From Roseobacter sp. CCS2 (GTDB lineage: Bacteria > Pseudomonadota > Alphaproteobacteria > Rhodobacterales > Rhodobacteraceae), in the NCBI RefSeq assembly GCF_000169435.1, contig NZ_AAYB01000001.1, forward strand, positions 682,001 through 746,000: a stretch of 64,000 nt of DNA, read 5' to 3'. This document shows positions 26,646-64,000 of this stretch, piece after piece (positions within the stretch are counted from its first letter, which is position 1; the number at the start of each line of letters is the position of its first letter). The position numbers were made by a program, and so were the translations under genes. Under the pieces are notes generated by a model, which made no database searches, had not been told where the DNA came from, and was given only the letters and a program-made list of their open reading frames with translations.

Positions 26646-26744
26646 TACTCCTCCCGGTGATTTTGAGCCCTCCCTCTCACGATCACCGGGTTCCCAAGAA
26701 TCCCGCCGGAGATCGGGTTATATCTCCACCTCCCTGTTGGACTT

Positions 26745-26774
26745 GCCCGGACCTTTGTGTCCGGGCTTTTTTTT
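26745..26774 (+). terminator. intrinsic terminator after response regulator
   Basis: An eight-base perfect stem (GCCCGGAC at 26745-26752 pairing with 26759-26766), six-base loop and eight consecutive T residues. It ends the regulator transcript about 100 bases after its stop. It also touches the 3' end of the convergent trkH-like gene. Confidence 0.9.
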
Positions 26775-31086: not shown

Positions 31087-31172
31087 TGTTGCGAAGATCC
31101 CAAGACCGATCTATTCGCACAGGTGGGACACCCTTCCCCAACGAAGGGCGCATATCTGTGAGGATACCACTG
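31087..31172 (+). ncRNA. serC leader-type regulatory RNA (candidate)
   Basis: Three stacked hairpins precede serC. The first pairs TGCGAAGATC (31090-31099) with GATC..TTCGCA (31108-31119). The second is a perfect six-base stem CCCTTC/GAAGGG (31131-31136 with 31143-31148). The third is TATC/GATA (31153-31156 with 31163-31166), whose loop contains part of the GAGGAT ribosome binding site. A serC leader motif (Rfam RF00517) is known upstream of alphaproteobacterial serC-serA operons, with a last stem that overlaps the ribosome binding site. Position and layout fit, but I cannot run the covariance model. Confidence 0.55.
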
Positions 31173-59476: not shown

Positions 59477-59553
59477 GGATTGGTAGCTCAGCTGGATAGA
59501 GTACTTGACTACGAATCAAGGGGTCGGGGGTTCGAATCCTCCCCAGTCCGCCA
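59477..59553 (+). tRNA. tRNA-Arg (anticodon ACG)
   Basis: A complete 77-base cloverleaf: acceptor GGATTGG pairs with CCAGTCC (one G-U), D-stem GCTC/GAGT, anticodon stem CTTGA/TCAAG with loop CTACGAA giving anticodon ACG at 59511-59513, T-arm GGGGG TTCGAAT CCTCC, then discriminator G and encoded CCA. The A34 is normally deaminated to inosine to read CGU, CGC and CGA. Transcribed in the same direction as the kinase gene before it. Its 3' end is the boundary to the odd downstream region. Confidence 0.96.
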
Positions 59554-59563
59554 TTTCAGTATT

Positions 59564-59658
59564 TGTGAGACGACACATAGTTCTGCACTTTGCGACAGAC
59601 CCTTTCCTTTTTCGACGTATAGCTTTGCCGTTTTGTGGTGAGGTTAGTCATGGGTTCC
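59564..59658 (+). repeat. 95-bp tandem repeat, copy 1
   Basis: First of two identical copies in direct tandem, beginning TGTGAGACGACACATAG and ending GTCATGGGTTCC. It begins ten bases after the CCA of tRNA-Arg. Not protein-coding in any convincing frame. Could be a tandem duplication, or the end sequence of a mobile element. Confidence 0.9.
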
Positions 59659-59753
59659 TGTGAGACGACACATAGTTCTGCACTTTGCGACAGACCCTTT
59701 CCTTTTTCGACGTATAGCTTTGCCGTTTTGTGGTGAGGTTAGTCATGGGTTCC
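59659..59753 (+). repeat. 95-bp tandem repeat, copy 2
   Basis: Second perfect copy, directly abutting the first. The sequence after it (CTTTCAAAG) differs from that after the first copy, so the unit boundary is set by the repeat itself. No mismatch between copies, which implies a recent event or strong homogenisation. Confidence 0.9.
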
Positions 59754-59834
59754 CTTTCAAAGTGGTTTTGAGCGAAGCACTTCAGGGCGCTCGTCTCTAA
59801 AACCTGCTCCCGGCGAGGGTTGGGGGTAGCAAGT

Positions 59835-59906
59835 GCAACACAATTCGACTGGGTTGGTGCGGCCCGCAGGCGTAGCCGAGGACACGGCCCTGTCTAATTG
59901 TGTTGC
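59835..59906 (+). other. 11-bp perfect inverted repeat enclosing a 50-base loop
   Basis: GCAACACAATT at 59835-59845 pairs perfectly with AATTGTGTTGC at 59896-59906. The enclosed GC-rich sequence has two GCGGCCC/CGGCCC-like copies. Immediately after come a GGGGAC-GAC-GTCCCC hairpin (59915-59929) and a GTTC/GAAC hairpin (59932-59944). The cluster looks like structured RNA or a transposon-end remnant. I cannot assign it. Confidence 0.5.
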
Positions 59907-60216
59907 AGGCGCGTGGGGACGACGTCCCCTAGTTCTTCCTGAACAGAGGGCGGATTCTGATCATTCGCTGCTGCGCAGCGCAGGCTTTCCGAGTTGGTCA
60001 CAGCGGACTTTCAACACCACGAAACGAAGCCAGTTCTGTTTCGCGGCAGTTCGTCGGAATTGTCGTCATTCGCTACACCGGCAACAATCGCTCCCTATTG
60101 CAGCCGTAGCAGACACTTGTATCATCTGAGAGTTTTGGGGCTCCAAACTATCTGTTGATGCTGAACCATAAATCGGTAATTCTCAGTGTGAAAACAGAGT
60201 AAAATATCGGTGTTTC

Positions 60217-63129
60217 ATGTCAACTCAGAAAACTGCTTCCATTTCGAATATCATCCAAAAGGCCAAGAAGGAAAACCTCAAAGAAGTAGATTTGTCGAAT
60301 ATGGGATTGTCAGAGATTCCCTCTGAGCTGTTTGAAATTCCTGACTTGCTTTCACTAGACTTATCTCACAACCAGTTCAAAAGATTTCCTAAAGAAACTT
60401 TCGCACTGAGTTCTCTCCGTACGTTTGAGATGTCGCACAATCCTATCAAGAAATTGCCCGAGGATTGGCACCATTTACAAAACCTTGCGCTACTAAATCT
60501 TACAGAAGTGGAGCTTGATGAATTACCAGATGGATTTTGTGAGCTAGGCTCCCTGCAGTTCTTGTATCTTGGATACAATAATTTGTCATACCTTCCAGAA
60601 AGTTTCAATAACCTCAAAAAATTGAGGCACTTGTTCCTGCACAGAAATAGATTTAATTCTATTCCGGGTAACCTCAAGCTCTACAAGAGTCTGGAAACCC
60701 TCACGCTTGGATCGAAAGTAAGAAGCATACCGAAGCGGATTTCACGCTTCGCAAATCTCAGAAGGTTGTGTATTGTTGATAATGAACTTGCTTCTCTCCC
60801 GAAAGAAGTCGCGAAGCTTGAGCGCCTAAACTCCCTCGAGCTGAGTGGTAACAAGTTGCAGGCCATACCGTCAGAGATAGGGTTTATGTCGGACCTGACG
60901 ACGCTAACTATACACGGAAATGACCTACCAGCCTCGCTTGTAAGTGCTGAGAAGGATGGCGCGGGTGTGCTTCTCTCCCAGATCAGGAGCCTGCTCGACC
61001 CGAAAAATACAAGCATCCTATCTGAAGCAAAACTTATGATCACAGGTGAAGGTAAGGTTGGCAAAAGCTGTTTGCGTATGGCTCTTGATGGCACGATCAA
61101 TCCAGACCGGGACCTGCTCAACTCGACAACTTGGGGAGTGGATTGTGGGACCTTTAGCTTACCAGACGCTGAAGACCCCGAAAAAGAAATTGACTTCAAC
61201 TACTGGGATTTTGGTGGGCAAAAGATCTATAGGATTACTCATCAGTTCTTCTACTCAGATCAAGGATTGTACCTACTCGTATGGGATCCACGGTTGGGTG
61301 AGGAGCAGTGCCTCATCGCAGATTGGTTGCGTCGAATTGGAGCACGGACTGCAGGAGAAGCTAAAATCATTCTTGTTGCTACACACGCAGATGTAGATGG
61401 AGGCAATTACTCCCCATATGTTGATCTTGACCGATATGACAACTCCCTGACTTCGATGATCGTCGATCAAATTAGCGTCGATAGCTTTACAAAGAAAAAT
61501 ATCGACAAATTGAAATTTGCAATTGCCAAGCATGCTCAAGGGATGCCGGGGGTAAAAAGCCCGATTAACAATACTTGGGACGATGCTCGCAAAGCCGCAC
61601 TGGATACGGCAAACACATCGCCTTGGATGAGCTATGTGGAGTTCAGCGACTTATGCAAGGAGCTGGGCATAGGTGATACAGAAGCAGTACGTTCAATTGC
61701 AGCAACTTTCCTTCATCGTTTGGGTCGCGGAATCTGGTACGGTATCGACTGGGAAAATGATGCCTTCTTGCATGATACTATTGTCAGAGATCCATCTTGG
61801 CTTGCCATGGCATTTATGGAGATCGTTCAGCACGAACGTACGAAGTCTGCGGGTGGTATCTTGGATCACAGTGATCTCACTGATGCGTGGATAAATCATG
61901 GGCGTGAAGAAGATGGCTGGCGAGTGTATCAATTGGATGATCATCCGAGGCTCTTGAGAATGATGCGTGCCCAAGGTGTCGCACTTCCCATTAGATCATC
62001 CCGAGGGGAAAAAAGCCTGATCCCACAACTTGTTCCGTCAGAAAAGCCTAAGCTGCCCTGGTGCGATCCCAATGATCTAGAACAAGATGATAGAGTCTTG
62101 AGGATGGAAGTTAAGGTAGTACCTGCAATTGATGGTTTTATGTCACATCTAATCGCTGCGCTTGAACCGTATCATTTCTATACGAAGGATGGGACCGGTG
62201 CATTTTGGCAAAGTGGAATTTTTCTAAAAGATACCGAGGGTCGCTTTAGGAATGAAGCACTCATCGAATTGAATACCGAGAGAAACTTTTTCTCAATCAA
62301 AATCGCGGCCTCCGGGGAGGAGCCAGGCTTCTTGCTGCAACAAATCGACGCTTCAATTGCAGAATGCCTAAAATTTTGGCCGGGAGCGAAAAGAGAAGAC
62401 AAAATTCGGTGTCCACACCGCGTTGGTGATCACCTGTGCCAAGGCGACTTCAAGCTTTCTAGCGTTGAACGATGGCTGGCGCGCGATATGGAGAATGCAA
62501 TATGCCACGAATGTGATCAAGTGTCGAGGCCATCAGATCTTATCTATGGTCTTCGCGGGCGCAAGCGCAATGACGAAACTGCCGACCGCCTTCTTGAGTA
62601 CCTTGCATACAAGGAAAGACGGCCTGCTCCTGGCAGCATAGTTTTGTTACCTGCAAAGGGGCGATGGAGAAATATCACAACCTGGGAGATTCTTGGCAAA
62701 AGCAGAATGAAAGCCCAGCTTCGATCTGAATTTAGTGGTGCATTGGTTGCTGAAAAGGAATTCACATCTTCCCCTGGCTTGCTCCGGTACTTAGGGCCAG
62801 CCGCAAAACTTGGCTCATTGTTCTTTGCCGCTGCACCGCTGCCGTTGGACCTTGCCCCGGGTTTTGCCGATAGCTTTAATGGGTTGAGTGACTCACTTGA
62901 TAAGCTTGGCGATCATCTTCCCGATGGCGAACAGGCACAATCGGTAGATCCCAGTTATTCAAGTCGAAACCTTGCTTTGGTTGCCGAATTCTTAGAGCAA
63001 ATCGAGTTAATGCCAAGACGCTATGGGATGGACTTAGAGCGCGCTCCAGATGGGAAATGGTATTGGATGTCCGCAGCAGAAGTTGAACAATATCGCCCAA
63101 CACAAGCTTCGTTGCCTTCAGGCACTTAA
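60217..63129 (+). CDS. bacterial Roco protein (LRR-Roc-COR)
   Basis: A 970-residue cytosolic multi-domain protein with about ten leucine-rich repeats (about 20-240; LxxLxLxxNxLxxLPxx pattern), then a Roc GTPase with P-loop GEGKVGKS (277-284), Walker B/G3 DFGGQ (331-335) and a THAD (389-392) in place of NKxD. A COR-like region (about 465-640; FLHRLGRGIWYGIDW) follows. A Cys cluster (C732, C741, C763, C766) suggests a zinc site, and the tail (about 800-970) is unlike anything I know. Roc-COR proteins are GTP-controlled dimeric switches; no kinase is attached. The gene is visibly AT-richer than its neighbours and stands alone, suggesting transfer. A STAND-like sensing or defence role is inferred only. 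Confidence 0.85.
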   Translation: MSTQKTASISNIIQKAKKENLKEVDLSNMGLSEIPSELFEIPDLLSLDLSHNQFKRFPKETFALSSLRTFEMSHNPIKKLPEDWHHLQNLALLNLTEVELDELPDGFCELGSLQFLYLGYNNLSYLPESFNNLKKLRHLFLHRNRFNSIPGNLKLYKSLETLTLGSKVRSIPKRISRFANLRRLCIVDNELASLPKEVAKLERLNSLELSGNKLQAIPSEIGFMSDLTTLTIHGNDLPASLVSAEKDGAGVLLSQIRSLLDPKNTSILSEAKLMITGEGKVGKSCLRMALDGTINPDRDLLNSTTWGVDCGTFSLPDAEDPEKEIDFNYWDFGGQKIYRITHQFFYSDQGLYLLVWDPRLGEEQCLIADWLRRIGARTAGEAKIILVATHADVDGGNYSPYVDLDRYDNSLTSMIVDQISVDSFTKKNIDKLKFAIAKHAQGMPGVKSPINNTWDDARKAALDTANTSPWMSYVEFSDLCKELGIGDTEAVRSIAATFLHRLGRGIWYGIDWENDAFLHDTIVRDPSWLAMAFMEIVQHERTKSAGGILDHSDLTDAWINHGREEDGWRVYQLDDHPRLLRMMRAQGVALPIRSSRGEKSLIPQLVPSEKPKLPWCDPNDLEQDDRVLRMEVKVVPAIDGFMSHLIAALEPYHFYTKDGTGAFWQSGIFLKDTEGRFRNEALIELNTERNFFSIKIAASGEEPGFLLQQIDASIAECLKFWPGAKREDKIRCPHRVGDHLCQGDFKLSSVERWLARDMENAICHECDQVSRPSDLIYGLRGRKRNDETADRLLEYLAYKERRPAPGSIVLLPAKGRWRNITTWEILGKSRMKAQLRSEFSGALVAEKEFTSSPGLLRYLGPAAKLGSLFFAAAPLPLDLAPGFADSFNGLSDSLDKLGDHLPDGEQAQSVDPSYSSRNLALVAEFLEQIELMPRRYGMDLERAPDGKWYWMSAAEVEQYRPTQASLPSGT

Positions 63130-63332: not shown

Positions 63333-64000
63333 CTACGAAGTATCAAAGGGTGCAGGGGAAATTGAGTACGGTGCCCCTTTTTCTGCATCTGATTCACTTA
63401 GAAACCCATATTCCACCAGTACCTTTTTCGCTGTTTCCCAATGAACTTGCAGTTTGGTAGCGATCGCGTTGATGGTTGCGCGTTCAAGCACGGCTTTAGA
63501 GATCTGACTTTGTATGAGTTTAGGTTTCCGTTTTCCACGACTGACTTTGTAACCAGCTTCTTTGAGTTGTTTCGAAAGGTTCGAAGGGTGCATTCGGATG
63601 CTGGCGGCTATGTCTGATATTCGTTCTCTTCGTTCATGCCGGTCGAATAGAGCTCTTAGATAATCGATCCCTGCCACTTTCATGATCTTCCTGACGAGAC
63701 GAGGCGTTACACCGTAAAATTCGGCTAAAGACAGGTGATTATTGCATGACTTGTACGATTTCCGGACGTCTTCAAATGCGTGGAAGTGCAAGTGATTTCG
63801 GTCATCAAGGATGGTTATGAAGGGCTGACCGTTGAATTTGCACTTCCTCAGTCTCAAAGCTGTTTTCCTCCGCCTCCTGTAAACTGGGCCAAGAAAAGCT
63901 CTATTTGCAACCGAAAATTTGAACATCTTACAACGAGTGCCATAACTATTTTCATATTGTAAGTATTTGATACAGAACAGAAAAATTGACTCTGAAGCAG
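63333..64000 (-). CDS. DNA-binding protein with three HTH-like repeats, 5' end outside window
   Basis: The frame runs from the stop at 63333 to the window edge without a stop codon. The ATG at 63926 has no good ribosome binding site, and the sequence upstream of it also reads as protein, so the gene is likely truncated by the window. The visible 222 codons are Lys/Arg-rich and contain three helix-turn-helix-like units: LSLAEFYGVTPRLVRKIMKVAGI, then RISDIAASIRMHPSNLSKQLKEAGY, then TINAIATKLQVHWETAKKVLVEYGF, each about 25 residues. It is a multi-HTH DNA-binding module, perhaps the C-terminal end of a larger transposition or regulatory protein. Family not recognised. Confidence 0.6.
   Translation of the reverse strand, partial: ASESIFLFCIKYLQYENSYGTRCKMFKFSVANRAFLGPVYRRRRKTALRLRKCKFNGQPFITILDDRNHLHFHAFEDVRKSYKSCNNHLSLAEFYGVTPRLVRKIMKVAGIDYLRALFDRHERRERISDIAASIRMHPSNLSKQLKEAGYKVSRGKRKPKLIQSQISKAVLERATINAIATKLQVHWETAKKVLVEYGFLSESDAEKGAPYSISPAPFDTS

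What the first reader, a model, noticed from the sequence alone, without database searches (positions are those of the whole stretch)
60217..63129. Orphan bacterial Roco protein with a novel C-terminal region
The protein combines LRRs, Roc-COR and a Cys cluster with a 170-residue tail I cannot assign. It is encoded in AT-richer DNA beside a tRNA, with repeats and a DNA-binding gene nearby. Roc-COR proteins act as GTP-dependent dimeric switches, and LRR-type sensor/switch proteins are frequent in bacterial immune systems. A new sensing or anti-phage function is possible, but this rests on architecture and location only.
Basis: partly seen in the sequence, partly recalled or inferred. Interest (0 to 1): 0.7.

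Follow-up and report, generated by a model that had tools for sequence, protein, structure and literature searches.

The report
Roco GTPase carried by Tn7-like transposon
A bacterium carries a relative of the Parkinson's-disease protein LRRK2 as cargo of a Tn7-like transposon beside a tRNA gene, at a place where related transposons sometimes carry anti-phage genes, so it may be a bacterial immune switch.

Summary
The ORF is real and intact (60217-63129, 970 aa): LRRs, Roc GTPase, COR-A, COR-B with a Cys cluster, and a C-terminal region. Two points change the picture. (1) It lies inside a roughly 24 kb Tn7-like transposon (TnsA, TnsB, TnsC, TniQ just beyond the window) whose left end starts 10 bp after tRNA-Arg; the "repeats" are that end in tandem duplicate, and the nearby HTH gene is probably the transposon's. 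(2) The tail is not unique: through an intermediate it is homologous to the C-terminal domain of other alphaproteobacterial Rocos, and the five that share it form a clade in a Roc-COR tree. In six related elements at the same tRNA-Arg in the genus, the stretch between tRNA and tnsA holds known or candidate anti-phage genes in three (SIR2-HerA, Olokun, PDC-S73 with an OLD-like protein). Other bacterial Rocos carry TIR or CHAT tails, and one sits in a type I-F CAST. Best reading: a single-gene LRR-GTPase immune switch carried as transposon cargo. Cargo status is close to shown; defence is inferred. No output activity was identified, the tail could not be modelled, and PADLOC has no model for the protein.

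The parts
59477..59553 (+). tRNA-Arg (acg), gene beside which the Tn7-like element sits
   Evidence: ARAGORN, Rfam tRNA 62 bits. In 51 of 56 genomes of the genus (own included) one match runs from the upstream sensor-kinase gene into the tRNA; 43 of those 51 stop within 6 bases of the tRNA 3' end
59564..59658 (+). left end of the Tn7-like transposon, outer copy, TGTGAGACGACACATAGTT..., 10 bp after the tRNA
   Evidence: L004 5564-5658; inverted match to the right end at G000:C11:765770-765788, outside the window
59659..59753 (+). second, identical 95-bp copy of the left end
   Evidence: family D1, 100% identical; the end pattern occurs once each in L026 and L028
60217..63129 (+). Roco protein, 970 aa: LRR, Roc, COR-A, COR-B, C-terminal domain
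60274..60936 (+). LRR region, about residues 20-240, inferred sensor
   Evidence: Pfam LRR; model blocks mostly pLDDT 73-86 up to residue 210, then 44-57; least conserved part between the close relatives
61030..61392 (+). Roc GTPase domain, residues 272-392, P-loop with K283
   Evidence: Pfam Roc 3e-18; G277, E278, G279, G282, K283, W330-F332, G334, Q335, T389 and H390 invariant in five sequences
61573..62034 (+). COR-A, residues 453-606
   Evidence: Pfam 1.3e-17
62101..62544 (+). COR-B, residues 629-776, with Cys cluster C732/C741/C763/C766
   Evidence: Pfam 8.4e-9; Cys pattern in relatives
62620..63126 (+). C-terminal domain, about residues 802-970, shared with other Rocos
   Evidence: blastp own to P0004 3e-15, P0004 to P0005 6e-12; tail search hit in G570 at 9e-12; clade 97/95
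63333..63926 (-). HTH protein, 197 aa, probably a transposon gene between cargo and tnsA
   Evidence: Pfam HTH_Tnp_ISL3 1.5e-4, below cut-off; a relative at E 4e-15 lies 0.7 kb before tnsA in another element of the genus (L082)

Best explanation
Shown: an intact LRR-Roc-COR GTPase with a conserved C-terminal domain lies inside a Tn7-like transposon (TnsA-TnsB-TnsC-TniQ) next to tRNA-Arg, between the tRNA-side end and tnsA. Inferred: it is a single-gene anti-phage switch. The fast-changing LRR solenoid recognises a component of an invader in the cytoplasm; this shifts the Roc-COR GTPase between dimer and GTP-bound monomer, as in the Chlorobium Roco; the C-terminal domain, freed or re-arranged by that change, sets off the response, probably growth arrest or cell death, in the place taken by a TIR or CHAT domain in other bacterial Rocos. 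The Cys cluster probably binds zinc and stiffens the junction of COR-B and the C-terminal domain. The transposon carries it as exchangeable cargo that pays for its upkeep.
For: Domains. Transposon genes: TniQ 1.4e-17, TniB 1.2e-15, Mu-transpos_C 1.1e-7, TnsA_N 1.2e-5. Ends: 17 of the first 19 bases identical between left end and inverted right end; the 11-base core, searched with one mismatch allowed, occurs in L004 only in the two left-end copies, and in L005 at the right end and once more 33 bp on. Same tRNA-Arg, other cargo between tRNA and tnsA in the genus: SIR2 7e-136 with HerA 2e-164; OloA 2e-77 with OloB 1e-168; PDC-S73 8e-135 with an AriA/OLD-like protein 3e-48: 3 of 6 elements, 6 of the 13 ORFs of 300 aa or more there. 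Control: 0 of 10 randomly drawn chromosomal window ORFs. Effector tails: TIR_2 in 7 of the 11 alphaproteobacterial Roco loci, 5 over and 2 under the curated cut-off, and CHAT in a Nostoc Roco. A Roco between tnsC/HTH and tniQ-csy genes of a type I-F CAST in Photobacterium toruni, outside our Roco clade (long branch). Patchy: full-length in 1 of 56 genomes of the genus and 3 of 394 of the family. Identity to the nearest relative 51% in LRR against 78% in Roc, pN/pS 0.42 against 0.17. 26% of Tn7-like transposons were reported to carry known innate immune systems (PMC8649781, passages).
Against: No PADLOC hit for the protein and no Pfam effector domain in its tail. The two nearest relatives show no tns genes in the stretches held; one is near conjugation genes, the other 1 kb from a contig edge. 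Three of six elements at the site have no known defence gene there; one of them has transport-like genes by eye. The ends of those six elements were not found with my end pattern and their TnsC are only 31-41% identical to ours, so 'same slot' means between tRNA and tnsA, filled by different Tn7-like lineages. Other cargo of this element is siderophore-type uptake. Several class Rocos lie among ordinary genes by eye. A fast-changing LRR is also what relaxed constraint gives.
Confidence: 0.5

Rival explanations
1. The Roco is transposon cargo but a stress, nutrient or surface-signalling switch, for instance tied to the siderophore-uptake cargo of the same element, with no role against phages.
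For: The same element carries a siderophore-type uptake set (Peripla_BP_2 6e-15; further binding-protein, permease and ATPase ORFs by eye); one related element has transport-like genes at this place with no PADLOC hit; only 3 of 6 show known defence genes.
Against: The uptake genes lie beyond tniQ, 8 kb from the Roco; the place next to the tRNA is where the defence pairs are in the other elements; by eye no siderophore genes stand beside the relatives in G359 and G305, within the stretches held.
Confidence: 0.27
2. The Roco is part of the transposition machinery: a GTP-dependent regulator or target/immunity factor of the Tn7-like element.
For: It lies between the end and tnsA here, and a Roco lies between tnsC and tniQ of a CAST in Photobacterium, that is, inside core modules.
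Against: Six elements with TnsABC and TniQ at the same tRNA lack it; in the genus 20 of 56 genomes have a TnsC match but one has this Roco; no tns genes beside its nearest relatives in the stretches held; the two Rocos are not close.
Confidence: 0.06
3. The gene defends the transposon rather than the cell: it acts against competing mobile elements or as an addiction module.
For: Position inside the element; another element end directly abuts the right end, so elements seem to compete for this site; an antitoxin-like HTH ORF lies after tniQ (phrog_1381 2.9e-16).
Against: No obvious partner gene in operon with the Roco: the next gene is convergent. A second element end is tolerated at the site.
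Confidence: 0.15

Closest known systems
Chlorobium (Chlorobaculum) tepidum Roco, CtRoco (PDB 6hlu, 8r4b)
   Same: LRR-Roc-COR order; phmmer from the window protein covers residues 8-544 at 3.2e-27
   Different: The C-terminal domain is not aligned; the CtRoco match of the tail-sharing relative P0005 also stops before the tail
Rocos of alphaproteobacteria G570 (P0004) and G594 (P0005)
   Same: Aligned over Roc, COR, Cys region and C-terminal domain; one clade with 97/95 support
   Different: 35% and 24% identical overall; P0005 has a longer linker and WLWLCPRH where this protein has WYWMSAAE
Rocos with TIR tails (alphaproteobacteria) and CHAT tail (Nostoc)
   Same: LRR-Roc-COR switch with a C-terminal add-on
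   Different: Their tails are recognisable effector domains; this one is not; six of the seven TIR Rocos form a separate clade
SIR2-HerA, Olokun and PDC-S73 cargo of other Tn7-like elements
   Same: Same tRNA-Arg, between tRNA and tnsA
   Different: Unrelated proteins; only the position is shared
Roco in the type I-F CAST of Photobacterium toruni NZ_CP101696.1
   Same: Roco inside a Tn7-like element
   Different: Sits between tnsC and tniQ-csy genes; distant Roco; tail shared with a Spirosoma plasmid Roco (3e-21), not with ours

Membership tests
Roco family | Roc GTPase domain with nucleotide-binding motifs | tested here: met
   Pfam Roc 3e-18; GEGKVGKS, WDFGGQ, THAD
Roco family | COR domain (A and B) directly after Roc | tested here: met
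   COR-A 1.3e-17, COR-B 8.4e-9
Roco family | GTP-dependent dimer-monomer cycle and GTP hydrolysis | not testable with these tools
   Needs biochemistry; reported for CtRoco (PMC11052575, abstract and passages)
Tn7-like transposon (for the element that holds the gene) | TnsA, TnsB, TnsC and TniQ genes together | tested here: met
   TnsA is 0.3 bits under the Pfam cut-off but is matched in other elements of the genus; the TnsB catalytic triad was not checked
Tn7-like transposon (for the element that holds the gene) | TGT...ACA ends with shared inverted repeats on both sides of the gene | tested here: met
   left 59564 and 59659, right C11:765788; 17 of 19 bases
Tn7-like transposon (for the element that holds the gene) | 5-bp target duplication and an empty site in relatives | tested here: inconclusive
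   GTATT and ATATT flank the ends, 4 of 5 bases; another end abuts the right end; the own right flank (pyk) is not beside this tRNA in relatives, nearest spacing seen about 31 kb in G043, about 140 kb in G032
Tn7-like transposon (for the element that holds the gene) | Insertion just downstream of a conserved gene | tested here: met
   10 bp after tRNA-Arg
Known anti-phage defence systems | Match to a PADLOC-DB model | tested here: not met
   0 families at E up to 1
Known anti-phage defence systems | Recognised effector domain | tested here: not met
   No Pfam match in residues 777-970 at E up to 1
Known anti-phage defence systems | Protection against phage | not testable with these tools
   Needs plaque assays
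STAND/NLR-type immune ATPases | STAND (NB-ARC, NACHT and the like) NTPase domain | tested here: not met
   The switch is a Roc GTPase; no STAND match. It can only work like one
Xop/SspH-type secreted LRR effectors | Match over the family's curated score | tested here: not met
   LRR-region matches only, best 104.5 bits against a cut-off of 600

The most novel reading that the evidence does not exclude
Rocos, the family of human LRRK2, are a bacterial counterpart of NLR immune receptors: LRR sensor, GTPase switch in place of the STAND ATPase, exchangeable C-terminal output (TIR, CHAT or this clade's domain), spread as defence cargo by Tn7-like transposons and CASTs. This clade's C-terminal domain would then be a new kind of immune output.
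Probability: 0.35. Interest if true: 0.82.

Novelty: new variant of a known kind. Interest (0 to 1): 0.57.

Why it matters
[quoted passage not shown] A Roco at a place where other Tn7-like elements carry defence genes makes a concrete role testable in a laboratory host. If true, the GTPase family behind inherited Parkinson's disease would have an immune branch in bacteria, in line with the proposal of brown-algal ROCOs as immune receptors (PMC11378527, abstract).

Tried and rejected
Secreted effector: NCBIfam named XopAE, XopAC, XopL and others, but on the LRR part and far under the cut-offs: rejected. Structure of the tail: AlphaFold2 from one sequence gave mean pLDDT 37.2 and from two sequences 44.7, good only in the LRR, most residues after about 234 under 50; no fold search was made on such models. 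Relatives in IMG/VR: 32 stretches matched a pattern and none encoded a relative. Phage records: LRR-region matches in 3 records. Plasmids: matches in 94 records, none covering 80% of the query. The G594 tail alone found nothing in plasmids. Empty site: the own right flank (pyk) was matched in 56 of 56 genomes of the genus, but nowhere that I compared does it stand beside tRNA-Arg (nearest about 31 kb, G043), so no empty site is shown. G024 has a left end at this tRNA but no TnsC match; it was not counted among the six elements and its ORFs were not scanned. Prior reports: Roc-COR with anti-phage (0 papers); Roco with phage, defense, LRR, GTPase (4); Roco proteins with prokaryotic, TIR, immunity (4); COR domain with defense system, phage, LRR (1); bacterial Roco (11); at least two of I-F3, CAST, Roco (1,884, of which 10 were listed). 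I saw listings and abstract starts; none showed a tested anti-phage Roco. The library lacks most subscription journals. Kaur et al. (PMC7159879) mention COR-linked AP-GTPases as rare parts of bacterial conflict systems (passage).

Full report
What is there. ORF 60217-63129 (+) encodes 970 intact residues: LRRs, a Roc GTPase (272-392), COR-A (453-606), COR-B (629-776) and a further 190 residues. NCBIfam effector names are LRR-region matches far under their cut-offs; PADLOC has no match. GC drops from about 0.55 to 0.41-0.50.

It is transposon cargo. The window is G000:C11:682001-746000. Just beyond it on the same contig (L004) lie TnsA (Pfam 1.2e-5, 0.3 bits under cut-off), TnsB (Mu-transpos_C 1.1e-7), TnsC/TniB (1.2e-15) and TniQ (1.4e-17). 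The two identical 95-bp repeats at 59564-59753 begin TGTGAGACGACACATAGTT. The inverted counterpart TGTGGGGCGACACATAGTT ends at C11:765788, 17 of 19 bases alike. The left end starts 10 bp after tRNA-Arg. The element is thus about 24 kb and holds the Roco between its tRNA-side end and tnsA. Flanking pentamers are GTATT and ATATT, an imperfect duplication, and another end (TGTAAAACGACACATAGCT) abuts the right end, so elements seem stacked at this site. In 51 of 56 genomes of the genus, own included, one match runs from the upstream sensor kinase into the tRNA, and 43 of those 51 stop within 6 bases of its 3' end; two more have it in two neighbouring pieces, and three (G007, G038, G045) do not show it in one place. 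No clean empty site was found. Between tniQ and the right end lie siderophore-type uptake genes, a Suc_Fer-like gene, a ParB-like gene with a second one by eye, and an integrase/invertase-type recombinase.

What other elements carry there. In the genus 20 of 56 genomes have a TnsC match at 1e-15. I fetched 15 element regions and used four others (L026-L029). Besides this genome, six have TnsA, TnsB, TnsC and TniQ matches downstream of this same tRNA-Arg (G043, G041, G015, G018, G028, G039); their TnsC are 31-41% identical to ours, and my end pattern did not find their ends, so the slot is defined as tRNA to tnsA. ORFs of 300 aa or more there number 13; all were scanned with PADLOC. Six are defence-type at 1e-20 or better, in three of the six elements: SIR2 with HerA (G043), OloA with OloB (G015), PDC-S73 with an AriA/OLD-like protein (G041). 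A TniQ fragment in G018 hits a CAST-associated TniQ model (2.3e-11), which I do not count. G018 also has a 756-aa protein without hit, G028 has transport-like genes by eye without hit, and G039 has only two ORFs under 300 aa, not scanned. Of ten proteins upstream of tnsA in four other elements (G051, G050, G036, G015:C4), chosen by size and by eye from the 129 ORFs listed, five hit PADLOC at 1e-10 or better (DpdE/DruE-like helicase genes, type II restriction-modification) and one more at 2e-5. Ten randomly drawn window ORFs gave 0 of 10 at 0.001. Tn7-like transposons as defence carriers are known (PMC8649781, passages).

The tail. Searched alone in 385 genomes of the class it hits its own genome, G570 at 9e-12 and two weak matches near 0.006 that I take as chance. 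blastp: own tail to G570 (P0004) 3e-15; P0004 to G594 (P0005) 6e-12; own directly to P0005 only 0.019, so the link to P0005 runs through P0004. Twelve positions, among them P, L, E, G and W-x-W, are invariant in the five tails. In a tree of 19 Rocos from 470 residues starting at the P-loop, the five that share the tail are one clade, 97/95. The region is therefore a conserved domain of one Roco clade, not an addition unique to this protein; it has no Pfam name. Its fold is unknown: models were poor there.

Relatives. At E 0.001 there are matches in 2 of 56 genomes of the genus, one of them LRR only, and at 1e-20 in 3 of 394 of the family sample. G359 (66%) is 1 kb from tRNA-Lys and 1 kb from a contig edge. 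G305 (44%) is beside Trb-type conjugation genes (TrbI 6.7e-60) and about 11 kb from a tRNA-Arg. Neither shows tns genes in the stretches held. COR-A is in 10 of 385 class genomes, 11 loci. Of those 11, seven have C-terminal TIR_2 matches at 3e-5 or better, five over and two (G609, G528) under the curated cut-off; three have this tail (own, G570, G594); one (G526) has a hydrophobic tail by eye. A Nostoc plasmid Roco has CHAT at 5e-34. Of six plasmid loci opened, one, Photobacterium toruni, has its Roco between tnsC/HTH and tniQ-csy genes of a type I-F CAST ('I-F3' is my label from the layout). Several class Rocos lie among ordinary genes by eye, which weakens a general rule.

Mechanism. Sensor, switch and output are inferred from architecture. 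Supporting facts: LRR is the least conserved part against the nearest relative (51% against 78% in Roc; pN/pS 0.42 against 0.17), and CtRoco undergoes a very large GTP-induced change about its LRR-Roc linker and turns monomeric (PMC11052575, abstract and passages). Output is unknown. The next gene is convergent, so no obvious partner is co-transcribed downstream; a 98-aa ORF just upstream (59833-60129, no Pfam hit) overlaps end DNA that is conserved in other elements and I take it as non-coding.

Verdict. Cargo of a Tn7-like transposon: about 0.93. Function: anti-phage switch about 0.5, element-serving defence about 0.15, other signalling about 0.27. Not a member of any described defence system tested here.

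Noticed in passing
window 59564-59753: Identical tandem copies of a 95-bp transposon left end; the pattern is single in L026 and L028. Could be recent duplication, a nested remnant or an assembly effect.
   Followed up: partly
L005 9770-9834 (G000:C11:765770-765834): Right end of the element directly abuts another Tn7-like end, 6 bp apart, followed by ligase/SDR-type ORFs by eye: stacked elements at one tRNA.
   Followed up: partly
L005 5823-9108 (G000:C11:761823-765108): A ParB-like gene, a second one by eye, and an integrase/invertase-type recombinase (phrog_95 1.5e-52) near the right end of the element, an odd trio for Tn7 cargo.
   Followed up: partly
window 59833-60129: 98-aa ORF in end-proximal DNA conserved in other elements, with a 20-bp inverted repeat at L004 5834-5907; probably non-coding, purpose unknown.
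   Followed up: partly
L044 5812-8550 (Photobacterium toruni plasmid): Roco inside a type I-F CAST, tail shared at 3e-21 with a Spirosoma plasmid Roco; nuclease-like by eye only, no Pfam match.
   Followed up: partly
L009 14236 to L010 3565 (G305): Beside the 44% relative: a carbamoyltransferase, several ORFs without Pfam match (four of them also without PADLOC match), and a HATPase protein; possibly an undescribed island system.
   Followed up: partly
L084 2615-4885 (G018): Unassigned 756-aa protein between tRNA-Arg and tnsA of another element, no PADLOC hit.
   Followed up: no
L027 8783-10902 and L086 10748-11411: tnsB (G043) and tnsA (G028) of other elements match as two pieces in different frames, so these copies look broken; described only.
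   Followed up: no
window 26700-26772 and 31121-31172: SorX sRNA and serC leader matched over Rfam gathering scores.
   Followed up: no
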